From IMG/VR virus record IMGVR_UViG_3300021420_000008, positions 1 to 50,916 of that record: 50,916 nucleotides of DNA; one strand, written 5' to 3'. Position 1 is the first letter of the stretch. Every line of letters starts with the position of its first letter. The position numbers were made by a program, and so were the translations under genes. Positions 15,164 through 24,764 of this stretch are shown piece by piece. Under the pieces are notes generated by a model that had not been told where the DNA came from, did no database searches, and worked only from the letters and a program-made list of their open reading frames with translations. The stretch comes from a virus.

Positions 15164-16378
15164 TCACGTTTTCTGCGTAGGCTCCGGATCCACTCCAACA
15201 TAGCGCAGTAGCCTCCCCTGCCCATTTATCTCCATCCGGACCTTCCCCAGCTGCAGCACTCCCATCAGGATCTGCTCGAACTCGTGGAAATTCGGGAACT
15301 GGTGGTGGATTTCATGATAGGCCTCTTCGTAAGTGCAGGTCCGATGTCGCTTCACGAATTCGACCAAGCGATCTGCTCCCATTGCGGCCTCATTCTTGCC
15401 AATCAGGGCAAAGACCTTCTCGAAGTCCGGCTCCACGCTGATCAGCATGCCATTGGCGTCCTCGAAGTCCTCAATCTCCAGCTGCATTGAGTCCCGTCGG
15501 GAGGCGGCCAGAATCATCGCGAGCTTACACAAGTGAGTTTGCTTCCTCGCCAGATAGTTCCGCATGATCGGTGAGCTGCACTCCGGGTACACCTTCTGCC
15601 ACAGATCCTCATACCAGATCTTCTCCCACTCTCTCGCTTCTGGCGTCTCCGTGAAGGGCCCCACGAGGTTGAGGCTGATATGCTCCAGATCACTGACGAG
15701 TGCCCTCCGCACCATCTCAAAGTCCTCCGCCGCGACCTCCTGGCTCGGATCATAGATCAGCCTCGCCTTCTCTTCTCGGTACACAAATATACAGCGTGAG
15801 GTAAAACCGCCCCCAACGGCAAGCCGCGGCATATTCTCTGCTATTGCGGGAGGAGTAGTGCAGCCCAGAAGGGTTATCCAGGGCGCTTCGACGATGTCCT
15901 TCCCATTCATCTTCGTGCTCTTGTCGAACCGTCTGCGACCATCCCACAAAGTGATGAAGAGGTTCACCATATCCCTGTCCTGCATGTTCAACAATAGCCC
16001 CAACTCGCTTGACACTAAGGTGATTGCCGACATCGGGTAGTGTTCGTCCTGATAGAGGAAGCTTTCGCAGCTCCCCGCAAAAGCTGTAACGAGCGACTGC
16101 CAGGTGATCGAATCTGGACCGAAATTGATTCCAGGCACTTCCCGCAACATGTCCAGCGCCAAATCGGCCGTAGAAGACTTGGTCACCACTCCCGGCGGAG
16201 CCACTAATATCACATAGAAAGACGGATACCATTTGAAGGTTCTTCGGTCGATCCAGACCTTTCGCCGCAGGGCTCCGCTGAGGGCGCATACCGCACTCCA
16301 AAAGTGCATAATGCCAGGGGCCTCAGTCACGGAGGCCCACTCGACATAGGTCTTCAACCAGTCCTCTAATTGTCTCAC
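15164..16378 (-). CDS. DUF3987-like P-loop protein, putative helicase
   Basis: A 404-residue protein starting at GTG in a GTGA overlap with the polymerase gene. The N-terminus (WLKTYVEWASVTEAPGIMHF, then SALSGALRRKVWID region) and the segment FYVILVAPPGVVTKSSTA form the start of a P-loop NTPase of the DUF3987 kind; the Walker A loop is degenerate, with Thr in place of the second Gly before Lys-Ser. Later WITLLGCTTPP and GGFTSRCIFVYREEK match conserved segments of this family. These proteins often sit next to phage polymerases and are thought to act as replicative helicases or primase-helicase relatives. The linkage with the polymerase supports a replication role. Confidence 0.7.
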   Translation of the reverse strand: MRQLEDWLKTYVEWASVTEAPGIMHFWSAVCALSGALRRKVWIDRRTFKWYPSFYVILVAPPGVVTKSSTADLALDMLREVPGINFGPDSITWQSLVTAFAGSCESFLYQDEHYPMSAITLVSSELGLLLNMQDRDMVNLFITLWDGRRRFDKSTKMNGKDIVEAPWITLLGCTTPPAIAENMPRLAVGGGFTSRCIFVYREEKARLIYDPSQEVAAEDFEMVRRALVSDLEHISLNLVGPFTETPEAREWEKIWYEDLWQKVYPECSSPIMRNYLARKQTHLCKLAMILAASRRDSMQLEIEDFEDANGMLISVEPDFEKVFALIGKNEAAMGADRLVEFVKRHRTCTYEEAYHEIHHQFPNFHEFEQILMGVLQLGKVRMEINGQGRLLRYVGVDPEPTQKT

Positions 16379-18885
16379 TTACAATCGCCCCACGAAATCC
16401 TCGAGGTCTTGACTCCAACCGGAATCACAAGAGGATCTTCGTAGGGGATTGTAATGCTCGACAGCTTGCGGAGTTTTTCAATGCTTGCGTCATGACGATG
16501 ACTAGGAAATTGCCCTGCGAGGGAGTCGTGCACCTGCAGTAGGACTTCAATCTCTGGTGCCTGCTCCCAGAGGTTCATCCAGGCTCTGTTGATGGCACAA
16601 CCCACTGTGCTCTGAGGTATCCAGGCAAGCCACTCTGGAAGTCCACCTTCGAGTCGATCGAAAATATACCAGCGATAGCCGAATGGATTCTGAACGAATC
16701 TGTGTCGAACAACCCATTCTTCGGTTCTTCGTTGCCATGCCAAGATGCCAGGATGAGCTCCAAACCAGAGAGCTTGTGCTCTCTCGACAGTTGCGACAGT
16801 CTCTCCCAGCTTTGGGGCGAGACCTCTAGCTGTAGCACCATAGTCAGTTGCATGCACGAACCTCTTTGCAAATTCCCGTCCGCCTCGCATCCTGTCGCGA
16901 TAGTCCCAATAACACCTCGGGCCGCAGGAACAGGCCTCTTCCCTGGAGTGACGCTCAATCAGCTCTTCCAGGGGAGGAGCCTCGCGTCCTGCGAGCACAA
17001 AGGCGTTGAGGAGATGAAGATCAACGCCCAAGCGAAGGGCAGCCTGTAGCATGCTATCGCGAGCCTCCCACACGACAACCTGGAGATCCGCTCGGTCGAG
17101 GTCCAGGTCAAAAAATGTGAATCCTGAATCAGGCCCAAACATAGTGCGTATATTCGGGAGCTGGAGCTTGGTTCCCCTCTTTTCAGCCTTGCTAACAGAC
17201 ATCGATTTGTCAGACGGAATGTTCTGGAGATTGGCTCCAGAACCAAAGGCGTTTTCTGAGGAGGACAAACGATAACTATACGGGGCAGATTTTCCACTCG
17301 TAGAGCCTCCGATGTTGTAAGAGCAGCGCATTCGATTATCAACGTCCAGCCGCTTGGTGAGCATTTCCATGAACTTGCCCAGCGTGCGGAGGTCAGCAAT
17401 CGCGTCGGTGAGGGGCTTCAGCAGGGGCTCCCGCTCCCCGATCTTGGTCAGCGCCTCATCGTTGCAGGTGACGTGAGCGGGCGCATTCTTCGTCGCTCGG
17501 GTCATAATCGCAGGCTGGGCGAAGTCGCGATAAAAGAGCGTCGTCATCTGCGGGTAGGAGCCGATGTTCAGCTCGTGGCCGAGGACCTCATGCAGCATGC
17601 CCTGGCCCGAAGCGATCGCCTCTTGTGTCTCCATAATTAGCTTATCTCGCTGTTCCGTCCTGACACGGATTCCGCGGAGCATCGCTTTGAGAACGGGGTA
17701 AAAGAGACGCTGCTGAAAATCGTGCACTTCCCCCAGGCCGAGTTTTTCGACGGAGCGAAGCTCGGCCTCCCCGCATTCTCGGGTGTAGACGCAGTCTTCG
17801 AGGTTATAACTCCAAAGCTGCTCTTCCCCCATCTTTGGATCCCAGTTCTTCCCCTCATCCTTCCAGTAGACATAGTGCCGTGCGTACATCGAGGCCTGGA
17901 AGTACAGGGCCTTGGGGAGCTGGCAAAACAGAGTGTGCTGCGAGATCATCGTGTCCTGGACACCGTGCGGGATAAAGTGCCAGTGGCGATGAATGTACTG
18001 CGCATCATAGAGGCCGTTCTGCCATCTCACCTTCACCCGAGGATTAGTAAGTAGCCGGAAGAGGAGCCAGATGATATGAGCTTCCTCGTCGAGAGACCAA
18101 TATCCTGAAGCTCGCTCGACGCACATGAAGGGTATTGACACTCCTTCTGTGAGGCTCCAGGACAGCCCACAACAGGCAATGTGACCAGCCCTGGTTTCAA
18201 GGTCGAGTTCGATCCACAGATCATCAGTCTGGGCTCGATCAATAAGTGCTTGAAGAGTCTGCACTGTTTGATTGAAGGTCGGCCGGATGAGGAATCGCCA
18301 CGAGGGTTTGTCATAGGTTCTTGTCTCACTTTCTCTCCGCGCGCGGCGAAGGTCGCTTACAGCAATGGCTCGCTGATCCCACTGACGCAAGATGGCAGCG
18401 GGGTGGATGGTAGGGATTAGCTTGGGAGAGTCGGCTCCGTCGAGCTGGAGGTGGCTGCCGCGCCACTTCATAATCCCCTTGCGGCCCGTTAGCGCCCAGA
18501 GGGGGTAGCCCCCGCAGCCGACAATGAGGTTAGGCTTAACAGCGGCAATTTCCTGCTTCAGATGCTCAAGCCCAGCGATGAACAGCGGCGCGACCTTGGT
18601 GTCGCGGAAGGGGATGAAATCCTTGGGACAATCCCGTCCCTTCCAGTACTTGGCCTTCTTGTCGAAGATCCAGGCTGCGAGTTCATTCTCTGGCGGGCGA
18701 GCGTTTACTAAGTTGCTGACGTAGATGTCGGAGCGCATCATGCCAGCCTCTTGAAGCATGCGATTCAGCTCCAGACCAGAGGCGCCGACGAAGGGGATGC
18801 CTTTGCGCTCCTCCTCCGCGCCCCAGGCTTCGCCGACGAGCATCACCTTCGCGGGGATTGGGCCGTCGCCAGAGCGGAGATGCAT
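16375..18885 (-). CDS. Uracil-DNA glycosylase / family A DNA polymerase fusion
   Basis: An 836-residue protein. Residues 1-180 are a uracil-DNA glycosylase superfamily domain of family 4 type (VMLVGEAWGAEEERKGIPFV and IPTIHPAAILRQW). Residues about 215-380 are a 3'-5' exonuclease with ELDLET (Exo I), WQNGLYDAQY (Exo II) and YNLEDCVYTRE (Exo III). Residues 380-836 are a PolA polymerase: motif A FFDLDLDRADLQVV, motif B REFAKRFVHATDYGAT, motif C LLQVHDSLAGQF. Motif A and C differ from the usual DYSQIELR and HDE: the second acidic residue in motif C is Ser. The glycosylase Fe-S cysteines of family 4 are not evident. This is the only replicative polymerase in the window. Confidence 0.9.
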   Translation of the reverse strand: MHLRSGDGPIPAKVMLVGEAWGAEEERKGIPFVGASGLELNRMLQEAGMMRSDIYVSNLVNARPPENELAAWIFDKKAKYWKGRDCPKDFIPFRDTKVAPLFIAGLEHLKQEIAAVKPNLIVGCGGYPLWALTGRKGIMKWRGSHLQLDGADSPKLIPTIHPAAILRQWDQRAIAVSDLRRARRESETRTYDKPSWRFLIRPTFNQTVQTLQALIDRAQTDDLWIELDLETRAGHIACCGLSWSLTEGVSIPFMCVERASGYWSLDEEAHIIWLLFRLLTNPRVKVRWQNGLYDAQYIHRHWHFIPHGVQDTMISQHTLFCQLPKALYFQASMYARHYVYWKDEGKNWDPKMGEEQLWSYNLEDCVYTRECGEAELRSVEKLGLGEVHDFQQRLFYPVLKAMLRGIRVRTEQRDKLIMETQEAIASGQGMLHEVLGHELNIGSYPQMTTLFYRDFAQPAIMTRATKNAPAHVTCNDEALTKIGEREPLLKPLTDAIADLRTLGKFMEMLTKRLDVDNRMRCSYNIGGSTSGKSAPYSYRLSSSENAFGSGANLQNIPSDKSMSVSKAEKRGTKLQLPNIRTMFGPDSGFTFFDLDLDRADLQVVVWEARDSMLQAALRLGVDLHLLNAFVLAGREAPPLEELIERHSREEACSCGPRCYWDYRDRMRGGREFAKRFVHATDYGATARGLAPKLGETVATVERAQALWFGAHPGILAWQRRTEEWVVRHRFVQNPFGYRWYIFDRLEGGLPEWLAWIPQSTVGCAINRAWMNLWEQAPEIEVLLQVHDSLAGQFPSHRHDASIEKLRKLSSITIPYEDPLVIPVGVKTSRISWGDCK

Positions 18886-19440: not shown

Positions 19441-19853
19441 TTCCGCCTCCAATCACCTTCTCTACGCGCCTGCCGATTGTCTAGTATTACTTCCCTATTC
19501 TTGTAATAATTAGCTGTAGCGCATGCTTTGTGATAGAAGTAATCTCCCTTTCCTGCATATGCTCCTTTGCGCTTTACTTGACTCATCGTTGCAGGATTAC
19601 ACCAAACCTTACAGAGATAACATTTGCGATAGTCAGGATTACCGCTGGCCAGGAGCGCTTCTGTTCTTGTGTGTAGAAGAAAATGATATTTCTGATCAGG
19701 ACAGATCACCAAGTTATTGTTCGTGTTCGCCGGATCTAGGTCTATATGATGCACTTGTTCACTCCCTTTCAGTTCTCGTCCTAGAGCCTTTTCTGCTAAA
19801 TAGCGATGCAGTGTATTGCCGTGACCGCCTGTTTTCGGGTATACGTAAGTCAT
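19437..19853 (-). CDS. HNH endonuclease, homing type
   Basis: A 138-residue protein with an ATGA overlap with the methyltransferase gene. The segment LHRYLAEKALGRELKGSEQV, then HHIDLDPANTNNNLVICPDQ is the HNH_3 domain (HH, then N, then H in KYHFLLH). The C-terminal half carries a CYLCKVWCNPA Cys cluster and KACATANYY. Enzymes of this kind are free-standing homing nucleases that cut and spread into related phage genomes. Its base composition is visibly lower in GC than its neighbours (for example the AT-rich stretch 19480-19860), which suggests later arrival. Confidence 0.85.
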   Translation of the reverse strand: MTYVYPKTGGHGNTLHRYLAEKALGRELKGSEQVHHIDLDPANTNNNLVICPDQKYHFLLHTRTEALLASGNPDYRKCYLCKVWCNPATMSQVKRKGAYAGKGDYFYHKACATANYYKNREVILDNRQARREGDWRRN

Positions 19854-21175
19854 TTCAGCCCCATTAGTCTTTTCAATGCTATTCCGTAAGATGCTTGATC
19901 TTTCTCAATAGCTGTAGCGAACAGCTTAAGGCTGTGTGCTGCAGCAAGGATAGTACCTGTACCACAGAATGGATCTAGTACTCTGTCACCTGGCAGACAA
20001 CTACGGCCGAGTAAATCAGCGAATAACGCAACTGGTTTTTGTGCGGCGTGACCGAGGTTGTCGTCAGGAGGGAAGGTGAGGACGTCGCCCTGGAGGAGAT
20101 TGCACGTCCGGGAGCCCTTCAGGGCGTAGAGAATCAGCTCATACTTCCTTTGCGGCCCCATCTGCGGCCAGGGAGCACGCATCCCGAGGGGCTTATACCA
20201 GACCAAGGGCGTGCGGAAGGGCTTCCAGCCCACACGCTGGAAGGCGTCCTTGAGCCAGCAGAACCAGTCGATGTCACAGAACATGTACAGGTGCGCATCG
20301 GGCTTGGCCACGAGGAACGATAGTTCCGCGAAGCGGGTGAATAGGGTTGCGGCTTCCTGCGGATCATCCGCATAGCCGTGGGGGAGATTGCTCATCCCTC
20401 CGCTGTCTCCGTACTCGTCCGCCCCGATCCCGTAGGGAGGATCAGTGAGGATGCAGGCGAACTGGTCCGGCGCCGCTTCCGAGAGCCAGCGGATGGCGTC
20501 GATGTGCAGGAGGGAGTGAGAATGCCTTCCGTAGGTCGGACCCATCTGCTTGGCCACCTCCGTCGCCCTGGCAGCGACCTCCTTGCGCTGGATCAGCTTG
20601 AACGCTGGCCTCAGGCCGCCTGCATCGCGGACCTCGGGATCGTCCAGATAGCGGGAGACGATTAGCTCCATTCGAGCTGTCTGTTGCGCGACTCCGATCT
20701 CGTTCTCGGTTGCGACAGCGAGGGGGTCGATGTAGCGCTCGATGCCGATTTCCTTACTCCCTGGTTCTGGCATTCCAGCTGCCTTGGCTTGAAGTCCTCG
20801 CAAGCGAGCGAGCAGGGCGGTGGCTTCTGCCTTCTCCACCCAGGTCAGATCGGTGCGAATGCAGTTCTCATCGTACTCGCACTGCAAGGCTTCCAGCGGC
20901 TCTAGCTCCCCCAGCTCAACACAGGGCGCCGCACCGAGGACGATCTTGCCCTCAAAGCTGTAACCCATCCCCAACTCAGTCATGTCCCGCAGGACGCGGA
21001 GGCGGCGCTCGCCTGACACGAGGGTGGTTGACCCGTTGAGCTGGCGGACGACCAGCGGAAGCTGAAGGCCGATCTGCTCGATGGAGGCCTGGAGTTCCTG
21101 GAGCGCCTCCGGCTTGAACTCCCTCCGCTGGCGATTTTCGGGGACCTGGATGTTGGCGATTGGTATTAGCTGCAA
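19850..21175 (-). CDS. ParB-domain / DNA methyltransferase fusion
   Basis: A 441-residue protein. Residues 1-210 are a ParB/Srx-like domain (IPIANIQVPENRQRREFKPE, then SGERRLRVLRDM), a partition-protein fold that in phages is often fused to modification enzymes. Residues 215-441 are an amino-methyltransferase with ILTDPPYGIGADEYG (catalytic DPPY, motif IV), WYKPLG, and VLDPFCGTGTILAAA (AdoMet binding, motif I), in the order of beta-class N6-adenine or N4-cytosine enzymes. It probably methylates phage DNA to evade host restriction or to control replication. No partner restriction gene is visible. Confidence 0.85.
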   Translation of the reverse strand: MQLIPIANIQVPENRQRREFKPEALQELQASIEQIGLQLPLVVRQLNGSTTLVSGERRLRVLRDMTELGMGYSFEGKIVLGAAPCVELGELEPLEALQCEYDENCIRTDLTWVEKAEATALLARLRGLQAKAAGMPEPGSKEIGIERYIDPLAVATENEIGVAQQTARMELIVSRYLDDPEVRDAGGLRPAFKLIQRKEVAARATEVAKQMGPTYGRHSHSLLHIDAIRWLSEAAPDQFACILTDPPYGIGADEYGDSGGMSNLPHGYADDPQEAATLFTRFAELSFLVAKPDAHLYMFCDIDWFCWLKDAFQRVGWKPFRTPLVWYKPLGMRAPWPQMGPQRKYELILYALKGSRTCNLLQGDVLTFPPDDNLGHAAQKPVALFADLLGRSCLPGDRVLDPFCGTGTILAAAHSLKLFATAIEKDQASYGIALKRLMGLK

Positions 21176-21823: not shown

Positions 21824-21886
21824 TTAAAGGGATTCCCATAGCGTGCGGAGGAGGATCCAGACGCAGAGCAACAGCACCGCTGTCAC
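21824..21886 (-). CDS. Possible 20-aa membrane peptide
   Basis: A 20-residue frame starting at GTG, which overlaps the stop of the Sak4-like gene as GTGA. It reads as one short hydrophobic helix (TAVLLLCVWILLRTLWESL). The start is coupled to the upstream stop, where GGGGAGGG lies just ahead. It is too short to be sure; chance open frames of this length are common. The remaining bases to 21746 hold only the leader of the next gene. Confidence 0.3.
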   Translation of the reverse strand: MTAVLLLCVWILLRTLWESL

Positions 21887-22776
21887 TTCCCTCCCCTCGC
21901 CTGCCACTTGTCCATTACCTGGGCAAAGTCCGCGGGCAGCTTGCTGGCGATGGGCAGATTCCTCGCTTTGGTGTCGATGTTCGAGGCAGCGGTGTCCCAA
22001 TAGAAATCCCTACCCTCGCGGAGGGAGTAGATCACGTCGCTGAATAGGGGCGGGATGTCATCCGCAATGGCTGTGCCGAGGGACTTGGTCATCGTCTTCG
22101 TTGTGCCTGTGAGGAAGTCAGTCTGCCTCCGCACATGTGCTGTCATCACTACCGTACACTGACAGGTGATCAGCTTGCGGAGGAAGTTCAGCAGATTGTT
22201 CTGTGCAACCAGGTACTCATTCTGAGCCATCATCGGCTTGTTGCCGATGGTCATCTTTTCAGCCGCTGCCGCGAGTTCGCTTAGAGAGTCGAGCATGAAG
22301 ATCTTGTCCGTCCCCCACTTATCAATCGCTCCAAATTTCTTGCCTGTGCGATCGTCGGGGAAGTCCGTGCAGGTCGCCAGGACGTGCCAGAATGAATTGT
22401 TCGCTCCCGCTCGCGTGCCGTCGATCAGCTTGGTGAGGGACTCGTAGCTGAGTTTCGCTACGTTATCCGCTCCGGTCATCAAGGATTGGAAACTGAGCGG
22501 TGCGATAGGCTGCATGTGCCAGTGGAGACAGTCCGGGATGGGCCTCGGCTCCCGGCGCTTGGGATCGTTGGGATCTGTATCCCGCCAATAGCCCATCAAG
22601 GTTTCGAGGCTCTGTTCGAGGAAGAGAATGAAGACCTCCTTCCCATGCGCTTGAGCCCAATCGACCATCGTAGCGAGCGCATAAGTCTTCCCTGATCCGG
22701 CGGGGCCTTCGAGCAGCTCCTTCGGACCGGCGAGAGTAGGTTCTGGTATCGATATTGGTACCGCTGCTAGAGTCAT
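21883..22776 (-). CDS. Sak4-like RecA-fold ATPase
   Basis: A 297-residue protein with GGGAGGAAG before its ATG. The Walker A motif ELLEGPAGSGKTYAL is at residues 20-34, and a Walker B-like strand with KIFMLDSLSELA follows near 170. Later LITCQCTVVMTAHVRRQ corresponds to the sensor strand of RecA-like cores. Proteins of this AAA_24/Sak4 group are phage single-strand annealing or recombination ATPases. It is followed by a possible DNA-binding partner and lies downstream of a RecB/Cas4-like nuclease, which together make a recombination or replication-restart module. Confidence 0.8.
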   Translation of the reverse strand: MTLAAVPISIPEPTLAGPKELLEGPAGSGKTYALATMVDWAQAHGKEVFILFLEQSLETLMGYWRDTDPNDPKRREPRPIPDCLHWHMQPIAPLSFQSLMTGADNVAKLSYESLTKLIDGTRAGANNSFWHVLATCTDFPDDRTGKKFGAIDKWGTDKIFMLDSLSELAAAAEKMTIGNKPMMAQNEYLVAQNNLLNFLRKLITCQCTVVMTAHVRRQTDFLTGTTKTMTKSLGTAIADDIPPLFSDVIYSLREGRDFYWDTAASNIDTKARNLPIASKLPADFAQVMDKWQARGGK

Positions 22777-23367: not shown

Positions 23368-23686
23368 AGGGTGCCTTCCCCACCAGTCCATGCTTGGCCT
23401 TGAAGATCACCAGAAAGCGCTCCAGTTCTGCATTGAGCTGACTCATCCGCTTCATGTCATTCTCTGTTGGATCGTGCCCTGGATCGAGGAAGCTCATCAC
23501 GCTGGAGAAGAGATGCATCGCTCCGGAGAAGAAAGCGATGCGGCATTCATCTCGCTGGATTTGCGGTGCTTCTGGAGAGAGTACCAGGCGTTCGTAGCTG
23601 ACCCAACCCGCTTCCATCAACAAGCCACGATCGGCTAGCTCCTTGGTGACGACATCGGTCAGAGCCTTGAGTTTCGGATCAATCAC
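23351..23686 (-). CDS. Small helical unknown protein (111 aa)
   Basis: The GTG start at 23686 overlaps the nuclease stop as GTGA. The protein is helical (LKALTDVVTKELADRGLLME) with a central hydrophobic stretch (ECRIAFFSGAMHLFSSVMSF) and a long amphipathic helix to the end (MKRMSQLNAELERFLVIFKA). No metal-binding or nucleotide-binding motif. It lies between the nuclease and the Sak4-like ATPase and is likely co-translated with the nuclease. Function unknown. Confidence 0.65.
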   Translation of the reverse strand: MIDPKLKALTDVVTKELADRGLLMEAGWVSYERLVLSPEAPQIQRDECRIAFFSGAMHLFSSVMSFLDPGHDPTENDMKRMSQLNAELERFLVIFKAKHGLVGKAPYGKNT

Positions 23687-24588
23687 AGCAACGTCTCCTT
23701 CCGTGTGAGCGGATCCCACTTCCGCTTTTCGAAGTCGATCTCCAGCCAGGGCTGGGCGTCCTCACTCATGCAGACCTTGCGGAACATACACCCCCCGAAG
23801 GCCGAGCATGCATCATCCAGATTGTAGTCCCAGTATCCCTCCTTCCAGCACTGGATCATCCGCTCGATGTCCCGCACAACCTGCTTGAGCCATCTGTCGA
23901 TCATGAACTGCGGCCGGTAGGTCAGTGCCTGAAGAGTGTCATACTTAGTCTTGAGAACGCTGATTCCGCGGATAAGAAATCCCTGAATTGGGATACCTGC
24001 CTGTTGGCAGCCCCAGCAATATCCGGTGAACTGGGCACGGAGATCCCACTGACGGGGCCAGGTGGCGCCGAGCTGGGTTGTGGTCTTATCATCTTCGCCG
24101 TAGACTGCGCCGGCAAATTCCGTGACTTGATCCATCCGGCCGCAGTAGATGATTGGACTGAGTGTCTGGGGATGGAGGAGCGGAAGCGGTTCTGCGAAGG
24201 AGAACTCAATCCCCTTGCGATCGGGGCCGATCTGGCTGGGGATCGCCGTCTCTTCGGCGAGGGGGTAACGGTCAAGGTAGTACTCCAGTGCGCCCATCAT
24301 TCGGGTAAGGGACTTCGGGGAGTCATCCGGACATTGGAAGTCACCGTATTCTTCGAGGAGAGCCTTCATTCCCTTCGCCGCTGCGGTGTTTGGATCCTCG
24401 CCCTGTTCGAAGAAGGACTTGCGGGCGACTTCCAGACCCTTGGCATAGGCCCCTCCGGCGTGGAGGTGGACGTTGGGTGTGCGAGGTTTCCAGTGCAGGA
24501 GATGCTCCAGATAAAATTTTTGCGGACAACTCACGAAGGTTGAGCGGAGTGTGTTATCGATCACTTCGGGAAAAGGGAGCGCTGTCAT
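23683..24588 (-). CDS. RecB/Cas4-like PD-(D/E)XK nuclease
   Basis: A 301-residue protein from an ATG with AGGAG upstream. The N-terminus DNTLRSTFVSCPQKFYLEHL is the entry helix of Cas4/RecB-family nucleases with its conserved Cys; then GGAYAKGLEVARKSFFEQG. The active-site strand is around YCGRMDQVTEF and VYGEDDKTTTQLG (D, then D-x-K). The C-terminus has SAFGGCMFRKVC with DDACSAF before it, a three-Cys group that with the N-terminal Cys can hold an iron-sulfur cluster. Such enzymes are 5' or 3' exonucleases that make ends for recombination, in keeping with the Sak4-like ATPase nearby. Confidence 0.85.
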   Translation of the reverse strand: MTALPFPEVIDNTLRSTFVSCPQKFYLEHLLHWKPRTPNVHLHAGGAYAKGLEVARKSFFEQGEDPNTAAAKGMKALLEEYGDFQCPDDSPKSLTRMMGALEYYLDRYPLAEETAIPSQIGPDRKGIEFSFAEPLPLLHPQTLSPIIYCGRMDQVTEFAGAVYGEDDKTTTQLGATWPRQWDLRAQFTGYCWGCQQAGIPIQGFLIRGISVLKTKYDTLQALTYRPQFMIDRWLKQVVRDIERMIQCWKEGYWDYNLDDACSAFGGCMFRKVCMSEDAQPWLEIDFEKRKWDPLTRKETLL

Positions 24589-24764
24589 TTTGCTGCTCCT
24601 AATTGTGCTTCCAGCTCCTTGATCCGTGCCTCGGCTACGGCGAGGTCGCACATCGGTATTGTGTAGGCTGGTGGGTCGTTAAAGCGACCGAAGTCCTCAT
24701 ACCCTCGCACCGAGATACACCAGCCTTCAGCGTTGCGCCAGCCTGTGATGGGGAGATCGGTCAT
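24585..24764 (-). CDS. Small unknown protein (59 aa)
   Basis: Starts at an ATG that overlaps the preceding stop as ATGA, and its end overlaps the nuclease start in the same way. The protein reads TDLPITGWRNAEGWCISVRG, then YEDFGRFNDPPAYTIPMCDL, and ends in a short coiled helix (AEARIKELEAQLGAAK). No known family. Its position makes it a link in the continuously coupled early operon. Confidence 0.65.
   Translation of the reverse strand: MTDLPITGWRNAEGWCISVRGYEDFGRFNDPPAYTIPMCDLAVAEARIKELEAQLGAAK

What the first reader, a model, noticed from the sequence alone, without database searches (positions are those of the whole stretch)
16375..18885. Uracil-DNA glycosylase fused to a family A polymerase with altered active-site motifs
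One 836-residue chain carries a glycosylase-superfamily domain (GEAWGAEEE and HPAAIL), a complete 3'-5' exonuclease (three motifs) and a PolA domain. Motif C reads VHDS instead of VHDE, and motif A has an Asp where a Glu normally follows. A glycosylase tied to the replicase could find uracil ahead of the fork, or serve as a sensor of template quality. The lack of obvious Fe-S cysteines suggests the domain may be altered in function.
Basis: partly seen in the sequence, partly recalled or inferred. Interest (0 to 1): 0.75.

Follow-up and report, generated by a model that had tools for sequence, protein, structure and literature searches.

The report
Phage replicase with uracil-glycosylase domain attached
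An environmental phage copies its DNA with a polymerase that carries a uracil-removing domain at its front end, a known arrangement, and comparing relatives suggests that the domain is kept even where it can no longer cut out uracil, so it probably does another job in DNA copying as well.

Summary
In detail: one 836-aa ORF (16375-18885, minus) joins a family-4-type uracil-DNA glycosylase (UDG), a 3'-5' exonuclease and a family A polymerase. It is no assembly artefact: 97 distinct relatives share the layout. The fusion is known (SPO1, PaBG).

The window's UDG keeps all six mapped pocket residues but not the Fe-S cysteines. Across the family the six are intact in 53 of 97 and changed in 44 of 97, while the exonuclease residues stay in 97 of 97. 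Changed domains remain fused, open and under purifying selection. So uracil excision alone does not explain why the domain stays; a DNA-holding role in the replicase, as for poxvirus D4, is the best guess, untested.

VHDS is ordinary (SPO1 and PaBG have it). New variant of a known kind.

The parts
16375..18885 (-). UDG-exonuclease-PolA fusion gene, 836 aa
18316..18885 (-). N-terminal UDG domain (residues 1-190), family-4 fold without Fe-S cysteines
   Evidence: Pfam UDG 6-172; AF2 of residues 1-191 pLDDT 95.7, Z 21.2 to Tth UDGa 1ui0
18808..18834 (-). UDG motif 1 GEAWGAEEE, residues 18-26 (E19 = Tth E41, E25 = Tth E47)
18784..18795 (-). PFVG residues 31-34, F32 = Tth F54 (uracil pocket)
18685..18717 (-). 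SNLVNARPPEN residues 57-67: N58 = Tth N80, N67 = Tth N89, A62 where Tth has Cys84
18454..18468 (-). KWRGS residues 140-144; W141, G143 and S144 kept in all intact and changed relatives, R142 in 98-100%: candidate DNA-backbone contact
   Evidence: role inferred
18388..18405 (-). UDG motif 2 HPAAIL residues 161-166 (H161 = Tth H155, main catalytic residue)
17686..18315 (-). 3'-5' exonuclease domain (about residues 191-400), motifs at 228-232, 290-297, 360-368
   Evidence: five motif residues kept in 97 of 97
16378..17685 (-). family A polymerase domain (about residues 401-836)
17077..17109 (-). motif A DLDLDRADLQV residues 593-603; D600 at the E710 steric-gate position
   Evidence: 97 of 97
16837..16878 (-). 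motif B REFAKRFVHATDYG residues 670-683; H678 at the F762 position
   Evidence: 96 of 97
16522..16533 (-). motif C VHDS residues 785-788
   Evidence: S788 in 95 of 97
15164..16378 (-). downstream gene, DUF3987 / phage primase family phrog_14296, start overlaps the polymerase stop
19850..21175 (-). upstream ParB-N domain fused to a DNA methyltransferase
21883..22776 (-). AAA / Sak4-like annealing protein
23683..24651 (-). PD-(D/E)XK exonuclease (Pfam score just under its cut-off; phrog_1218 exonuclease)

Best explanation
This is the replicative polymerase of a tailed phage: a family A polymerase with its own proofreading exonuclease and a fused N-terminal UDG domain of family-4 descent that has lost the Fe-S cluster. 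Shown: the fusion, the fold, the conserved residues and the pattern of pocket loss. Inferred: in this family the domain is kept mainly because it binds DNA and holds the replicase on its template, the part that UDG D4 plays for the poxvirus polymerase; uracil excision is an optional extra. The window's copy probably still recognises and may excise uracil, since its pocket is intact, whereas relatives have lost the catalytic His or Asn residues several times and kept the domain. The polymerase has an unusual sugar gate (Asp at 710, His at 762), which probably changes how it selects the sugar of the incoming nucleotide.
For: UDG fold: Z 21.3 to 1vk2 and 21.2 to 1ui0 against 15.8 to the family 5 enzyme 2d3y. 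Pocket residues mapped by an ungapped alignment to 1ui0 and by published mutants (PMC5387724 passages). Full-length AF2 model pLDDT 91.1, pTM 0.89. Pocket hexad intact in 53 of 97, changed in 44 of 97 in 26 ways, at least eight switches forced by well supported branches of the polymerase tree. Changed domains stay open in frame (stops inside: none in 35 of 35 records) with UDG dN/dS of 0 to 0.13 in 41 pairs, 40 of them changed-changed. KWRGS, G125, P158, D178 and R181 stay at 95-100% in changed copies. SPO1's UDG also has an altered pocket (Met at the Tth F54 position, Ser at N80). D4 precedent: passages of PMC1936997 and PMC4450493.
Against: No activity, binding or processivity was measured. 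The UDG domain's own tree forces only two switches, so exchange of the UDG segment between phages could mimic repeated loss. At matched polymerase identity changed copies diverge faster (polymerase bin 0.75: UDG identity 0.59 in 175 changed pairs against 0.68 in 42 intact pairs), so constraint is partly relaxed. The 41 dN/dS pairs come mostly from one clade and are not independent. 53 intact copies argue that catalysis does matter for many phages. Scan 46 was aimed at a changed clade, so 44 of 97 is not a natural frequency; in the 52 that I picked from scans 9, 29 and 30 it is 19 of 52.
Confidence: 0.5

Rival explanations
1. The domain is an active uracil remover tied to the replicase: it takes uracil out of template or new strands at the fork, and lineages with changed pockets have simply dropped the function.
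For: All six mapped pocket residues intact in the window and in 53 of 97. No second UDG in any of 35 records and dUTPase in only 1 of 35, so uracil could enter phage DNA.
Against: An abasic site in the template would block the same polymerase (established knowledge). Changed copies stay fused and constrained. No Fe-S cluster, and motif 1 Pro is Trp in the window.
Confidence: 0.25
2. It is a read-ahead sensor: it binds template uracil without cutting and stalls synthesis, as archaeal family B polymerases do (recalled).
For: Position at the N terminus of the replicase; intact pocket in the window.
Against: A sensor also needs the uracil-binding Asn (Tth N80), which is changed in 32 of 97.
Confidence: 0.1
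3. The pocket is being retuned to other bases, for example modified ones, in an arms race; changed pockets are new specificities.
For: One clade holds a stable alternative set (EDFYGT in 12 of 97). SPO1 (dUMP hydroxymethylase annotated) also has an altered pocket.
Against: 26 different changed sets in 44 proteins look like decay rather than a few new specificities. ThyA 0 of 35; ThyX over cut-off 1 of 35.
Confidence: 0.15
4. The domain is a passive relic that survives because the polymerase needs something folded at its N terminus.
For: Faster divergence of changed copies at matched polymerase identity.
Against: UDG dN/dS of at most 0.13; family-wide KWRGS and R181 conservation. In the His762 relatives PaP2, EBPR3 and Tiera only about 143 residues precede the exonuclease and no UDG motif 1 aligns, so such a polymerase can do without a recognisable one.
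Confidence: 0.15

Closest known systems
SPO1 gp31 DNA polymerase (UDG-like N terminus + exonuclease + PolA)
   Same: Same domain order; VHDS in motif C; no Cys in its UDG part
   Different: SPO1 keeps the usual motif A Glu and Phe762 and has an altered uracil pocket; the window has an intact pocket, Asp710 and His762
PaBG gp205 and the Lupandier jumbo phages (PMC7412058, passages)
   Same: UDG + 3'-5' exonuclease + polymerase in one chain, described in print
   Different: Much larger phage; in my alignment PaBG's pocket is not conserved, though that alignment is weak; Phe762
Tth UDGa / family 4 UDG (1ui0, 1vk2, 4zbx)
   Same: Fold (Z about 21), motif order and six pocket residues
   Different: Stand-alone Fe-S enzymes; here fused, cysteines gone, motif 1 GEAWG instead of GEAPG/GEGPG
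UdgX
   Same: Fold (Z 20-21)
   Different: No KRRIH loop and no GEQPG motif (defining motifs from the abstract of PMC10359453 as listed)
phiLo family-A polymerase, PDB 9qhs
   Same: Solved phage polymerase whose chain residues 34-205 match the UDG domain (Z 15.1)
   Different: 1142-aa chain; only 24% identity in this domain; no paper found
Vaccinia D4/A20/E9 replicase
   Same: A UDG serves as part of a polymerase; replication role independent of glycosylase activity (passages)
   Different: Separate UDG chain bridged by A20 to the E9 polymerase; no homology of the assembly claimed
Tyr/Phe/Leu762 viral PolA types (PMC6302109, PMC13228545, passages)
   Same: Phage PolA classified by the motif B residue
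   Different: Here that residue is His, with Asp at the 710 gate

Membership tests
Family 4 UDG (UDGa) | UDG superfamily fold closest to family 4 | tested here: met
   Z 21.3 1vk2, 21.2 1ui0, 15.8 for family 5 2d3y
Family 4 UDG (UDGa) | Pocket residues E41, E47, F54, N80, N89, H155 | tested here: met
   E19, E25, F32, N58, N67, H161
Family 4 UDG (UDGa) | Motif 1 GE(A/G)PG | tested here: not met
   GEAWG; Trp in 11 of 97, Pro in 76 of 97
Family 4 UDG (UDGa) | Four Fe-S cysteines | tested here: not met
   Ala at Tth Cys84, no N-terminal CxxC; that there are four is recalled
Family 4 UDG (UDGa) | TIGR00758 curated cut-off (125.3 bits) | tested here: not met
   92.7 bits
Family 4 UDG (UDGa) | Uracil excision activity | not testable with these tools
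   needs an assay
UdgX | GEQPG and KRRIH loop | tested here: not met
   GEAWG; no KRRIH in the sequence
Family A DNA polymerase | Motif A and C Asp, motif B Arg/Lys/Tyr | tested here: met
   D595, D787, R670, K674, Y682; Z 35.7 to Bst Pol I over 546 residues
Family A DNA polymerase | Usual Glu710 and Phe/Tyr/Leu762 | tested here: not met
   D600 and H678
Phage UDG-PolA fusion (SPO1/PaBG type, phrog_17) | UDG + 3'-5' exonuclease + PolA in one chain | tested here: met
   phrog_17 spans 13-836, E 2.3e-60
D4-like replicase processivity factor | Raises polymerase processivity independent of glycosylase activity | not testable with these tools
   inferred only

The most novel reading that the evidence does not exclude
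A whole family of environmental phages uses a fused glycosylase as a built-in DNA holder for its replicase, a bacterial counterpart to poxvirus D4 reached independently, in which uracil excision is repeatedly discarded; and this replicase belongs to an unreported His762 class of PolA with a rebuilt sugar gate (His762 arose first, Asp710 later).
Probability: 0.3. Interest if true: 0.75.

Novelty: new variant of a known kind. Interest (0 to 1): 0.5.

Why it matters
The UDG-polymerase fusion has been noted for years with a guess about processivity and, in the papers I could find, no test. This family supplies a natural experiment: related replicases with intact and with changed pockets, both kept fused. 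Comparing them would show directly whether a repair domain in a replicase works as an enzyme, a sensor or a grip on DNA. The His762/Asp710 gate adds a residue class at the position that has been used to link phage polymerase chemistry with life style, and may give polymerases with new nucleotide selectivity.

Tried and rejected
Assembly error joining two genes: rejected; 97 unique full-length relatives and named phages share the layout.

UdgX-like covalent trap: rejected; no KRRIH, no GEQPG.

VHDS as a sign of altered catalysis: rejected as unusual; SPO1, PaBG, LpeD, Kuura, ctfzr933 and ctLwi270 have HDS too.

A gene that explains pocket loss: 29 records compared by ORF clustering. An endonuclease VII-like HNH ORF cluster appeared in 10 records with changed pockets and in none with an intact one. 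One search showed that I had counted record G024 as intact although its pocket is changed, so the true split is 14 intact and 15 changed: 0 of 14 against 10 of 15; 5 of the 15 changed records lack it. Most carriers sit in one clade, and some cluster members are short or in other frames; I read it as shared ancestry and did not pursue it. Many other listed clusters are ORFs in non-coding frames.

Nucleotide-pool genes: dUTPase 1 of 35, ThyA 0 of 35, ThyX 1 of 35 over cut-off plus one below it; records may be fragments.

Structure search with the whole model was filled by polymerases; the UDG domain was therefore folded alone. The tool gives no coordinates, so the position of the UDG pocket relative to the DNA cleft could not be measured. 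9qhs gave no paper: the search for 9QHS returned 2 unrelated papers and phiLo/Thermus/polymerase returned 12, of which the 10 listed are unrelated by title.

Plasmids: 197 of 72,556 records matched, none over 80% of the query; the 10 listed match only from residue 215 or later, so no UDG part. Genome collection: 3 of 150 pattern-matching stretches encode relatives. A scan with L017 found only its own contig.

Not in print: for UDG-PolA fusions I searched; for position 762, and word searches in PMC6302109, PMC9069017 and PMC13228545 (0 hits for histidine). Schmidt 2014 was not read.
Full report
WHAT IS THERE. The window is an IMG/VR virus record of 50,916 bases. The ORF at 16375-18885 minus is real and 836 aa long. 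Residues 6-172 match Pfam UDG (74.6 bits, cut-off 24.3), the C-terminal part DNA_pol_A (69.3, cut-off 34.3). It scores 92.7 bits against UDG_fam4, below the curated 125.3. phrog_17, a phage DNA polymerase family, covers residues 13-836. Neighbours on the same strand are a DUF3987/primase-family gene, a ParB-methyltransferase, a Sak4-like AAA protein and a PD-(D/E)XK exonuclease; a large terminase, a portal protein and an endolysin elsewhere mark a tailed phage.

NOT CHANCE, NOT AN ARTEFACT. tblastn finds 101 of 50,697 phage records, 14 covering at least 80% of the query; MW202489 and Microcystis phage Mel-JY34 carry the same fusion at 42-45% identity with similar neighbours. In IMG/VR, 22 of 22 stretches of one scan and 496 of 503 of another (best 80 kept) encode relatives; of the genome collection, 3 of 150. 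From all loci I took 146 full-length copies, 97 unique proteins; 16 loci were set aside as fragments or split genes.

THE UDG DOMAIN. A profile of 20 UDG domains matches family 4 structures best. Residues 1-191 folded alone (pLDDT 95.7) match 1vk2 at Z 21.3 (rmsd 1.8, 159 aligned), 1ui0 at 21.2 (2.1, 161), UdgX at 20-21, and the family 5 enzyme 2d3y at 15.8 (2.5, 155). Published mutants of Tth UDGa define the pocket as E41, G42, E47, F54, N80, H155, with N89 as water-holder (PMC5387724, passages). The ungapped alignment (window residue = Tth residue minus 22) puts E19, A20, E25, F32, N58 and N67 there; H161 lies in HPAAIL. The window has all six conserved ones. The Cys84 position is Ala62 and no N-terminal CxxC exists; none of 52 relatives has Cys at 62. 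Motif 1 is GEAWG, with Trp for Pro (11 of 97).

THE POCKET IS OFTEN LOST. Across 97 unique proteins the six residues read EEFNNH in 53 and differ in 44, in 26 different ways; the H155 position itself is lost in 33. Five exonuclease residues, the motif A Asp, Asp at 710 and Tyr766 are kept in 97 of 97. On a tree of the exonuclease and polymerase columns the intact/changed label needs nine switches, eight forced by well supported branches. Clear single cases are L055 among intact relatives, L162 beside L158, and L033 beside L032. A tree of the UDG columns alone needs eight, but its weak support forces only two, so exchange of UDG segments between phages is possible. Scan 46 was aimed at a changed clade, so the ratio is not a frequency; in the 52 sequences that I picked from scans 9, 29 and 30 the split is 33 intact, 19 changed.

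CHANGED DOMAINS ARE STILL CONSTRAINED. UDG dN/dS lies between 0 and 0.13 in all 41 pairs with usable polymerase dS, 40 of them changed-changed, mostly from one clade. All 35 records searched hold exactly one UDG match without stops. Constraint is weaker than in intact copies: at polymerase identity near 0.6, UDG identity averages 0.46 (172 changed pairs) against 0.55 (300 intact pairs). W141, G143, S144, P158 and D178 are kept in all rows of both groups, and R142, R172 and R181 at 96-100%.

THE POLYMERASE. The full-length model is confident (pLDDT 91.1, pTM 0.89); residues 194-836 match Bst Pol I at Z 35.7 over 546 residues. VHDS is common: SPO1, PaBG, LpeD, Kuura and others have it. Asp at the E710 gate is kept in 97 of 97 and His at 762 in 96 of 97 (Tyr in L155). 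With named phages added, all His762 polymerases form one supported group (97 SH-aLRT) with Pseudomonas phage PaP2, EBPR podovirus 3, Polaromonas phage Tiera, Caulobacter phage Kuura, a Desulfofustis phage and a Vibrio phage; Asp710 is nested inside it (98) (a quick tree of 36 rows with long branches). So His762 probably came first and Asp710 later. Papers on this position name Phe, Tyr and Leu (PMC6302109 and PMC13228545, passages), and the word histidine is absent from both and from PMC9069017. PMC13228545 calls E710 the steric gate and F762 its assistant, so the pair is where a change of sugar selection would be expected; this is inference.

HOW IT PROBABLY WORKS. Shown: a UDG-folded domain, constrained in sequence, sits on every full-length replicase collected from this family, whether or not its pocket can work. 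Inferred: its lasting use is to grip DNA for the polymerase, with uracil excision an extra kept by some. The precedent is poxvirus D4, whose replication role does not depend on glycosylase activity (PMC1936997 and PMC4450493, passages), and one phage paper mentions a processivity suggestion for the SPO1-type domain (PMC5135824, passage). For the window's own copy, active excision is plausible. Almost none of these phages encodes dUTPase (1 of 35) or thymidylate synthase (ThyA 0, ThyX 1 of 35).

NOVELTY. The architecture is known: SPO1 and phage Shbh1, PaBG and its group (PMC7412058, passages), and a solved phage polymerase, 9qhs. New here as far as I could search: a large environmental family with repeated pocket loss under retained constraint, the Fe-S-free but pocket-complete state of the window copy, and the His762/Asp710 class. 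I file it as a new variant of a known kind.

Noticed in passing
L138 (full-length protein of 1126 aa): An in-frame insert of 298 aa right after the motif B His, starting CITGDHEVLTPEGW, looks like an intein in the polymerase active site.
   Followed up: partly
L146, L149, L152: The gene is split into a UDG-exonuclease ORF and a polymerase ORF at nearly the same place, near the YWKDEGK motif; the Vibrio ABTNL3 and Kuura polymerases are also split by inserted ORFs.
   Followed up: partly
L193:11302-12048 (-) and cluster mates: An endonuclease VII-like HNH ORF occurs in 10 of 15 records with a changed UDG pocket and 0 of 14 with an intact one; probably shared ancestry.
   Followed up: partly
window 19850-21175 (-): ParB N-terminal domain fused to an N4/N6 DNA methyltransferase just upstream; methyltransferase or ParB-like genes stand upstream of the polymerase in MW202489, Mel-JY34, the Vibrio phage and the Desulfofustis phage too.
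   Followed up: no
L253, PaBG: The published UDG domain of PaBG aligns without the pocket residues in my alignment, so a repair role assumed in its paper may need a second look; the alignment there is weak.
   Followed up: no
G021 (75 kb record of L091): The only record with both dUTPase and ThyX, and its UDG pocket is changed (EAFLGT).
   Followed up: no
L100, L101, L102: Relatives sit on contigs labelled Planctomycetota, Nitrososphaera and Dokdonella MAGs, 44-51 kb long, so they may be phage contigs binned with these genomes.
   Followed up: no
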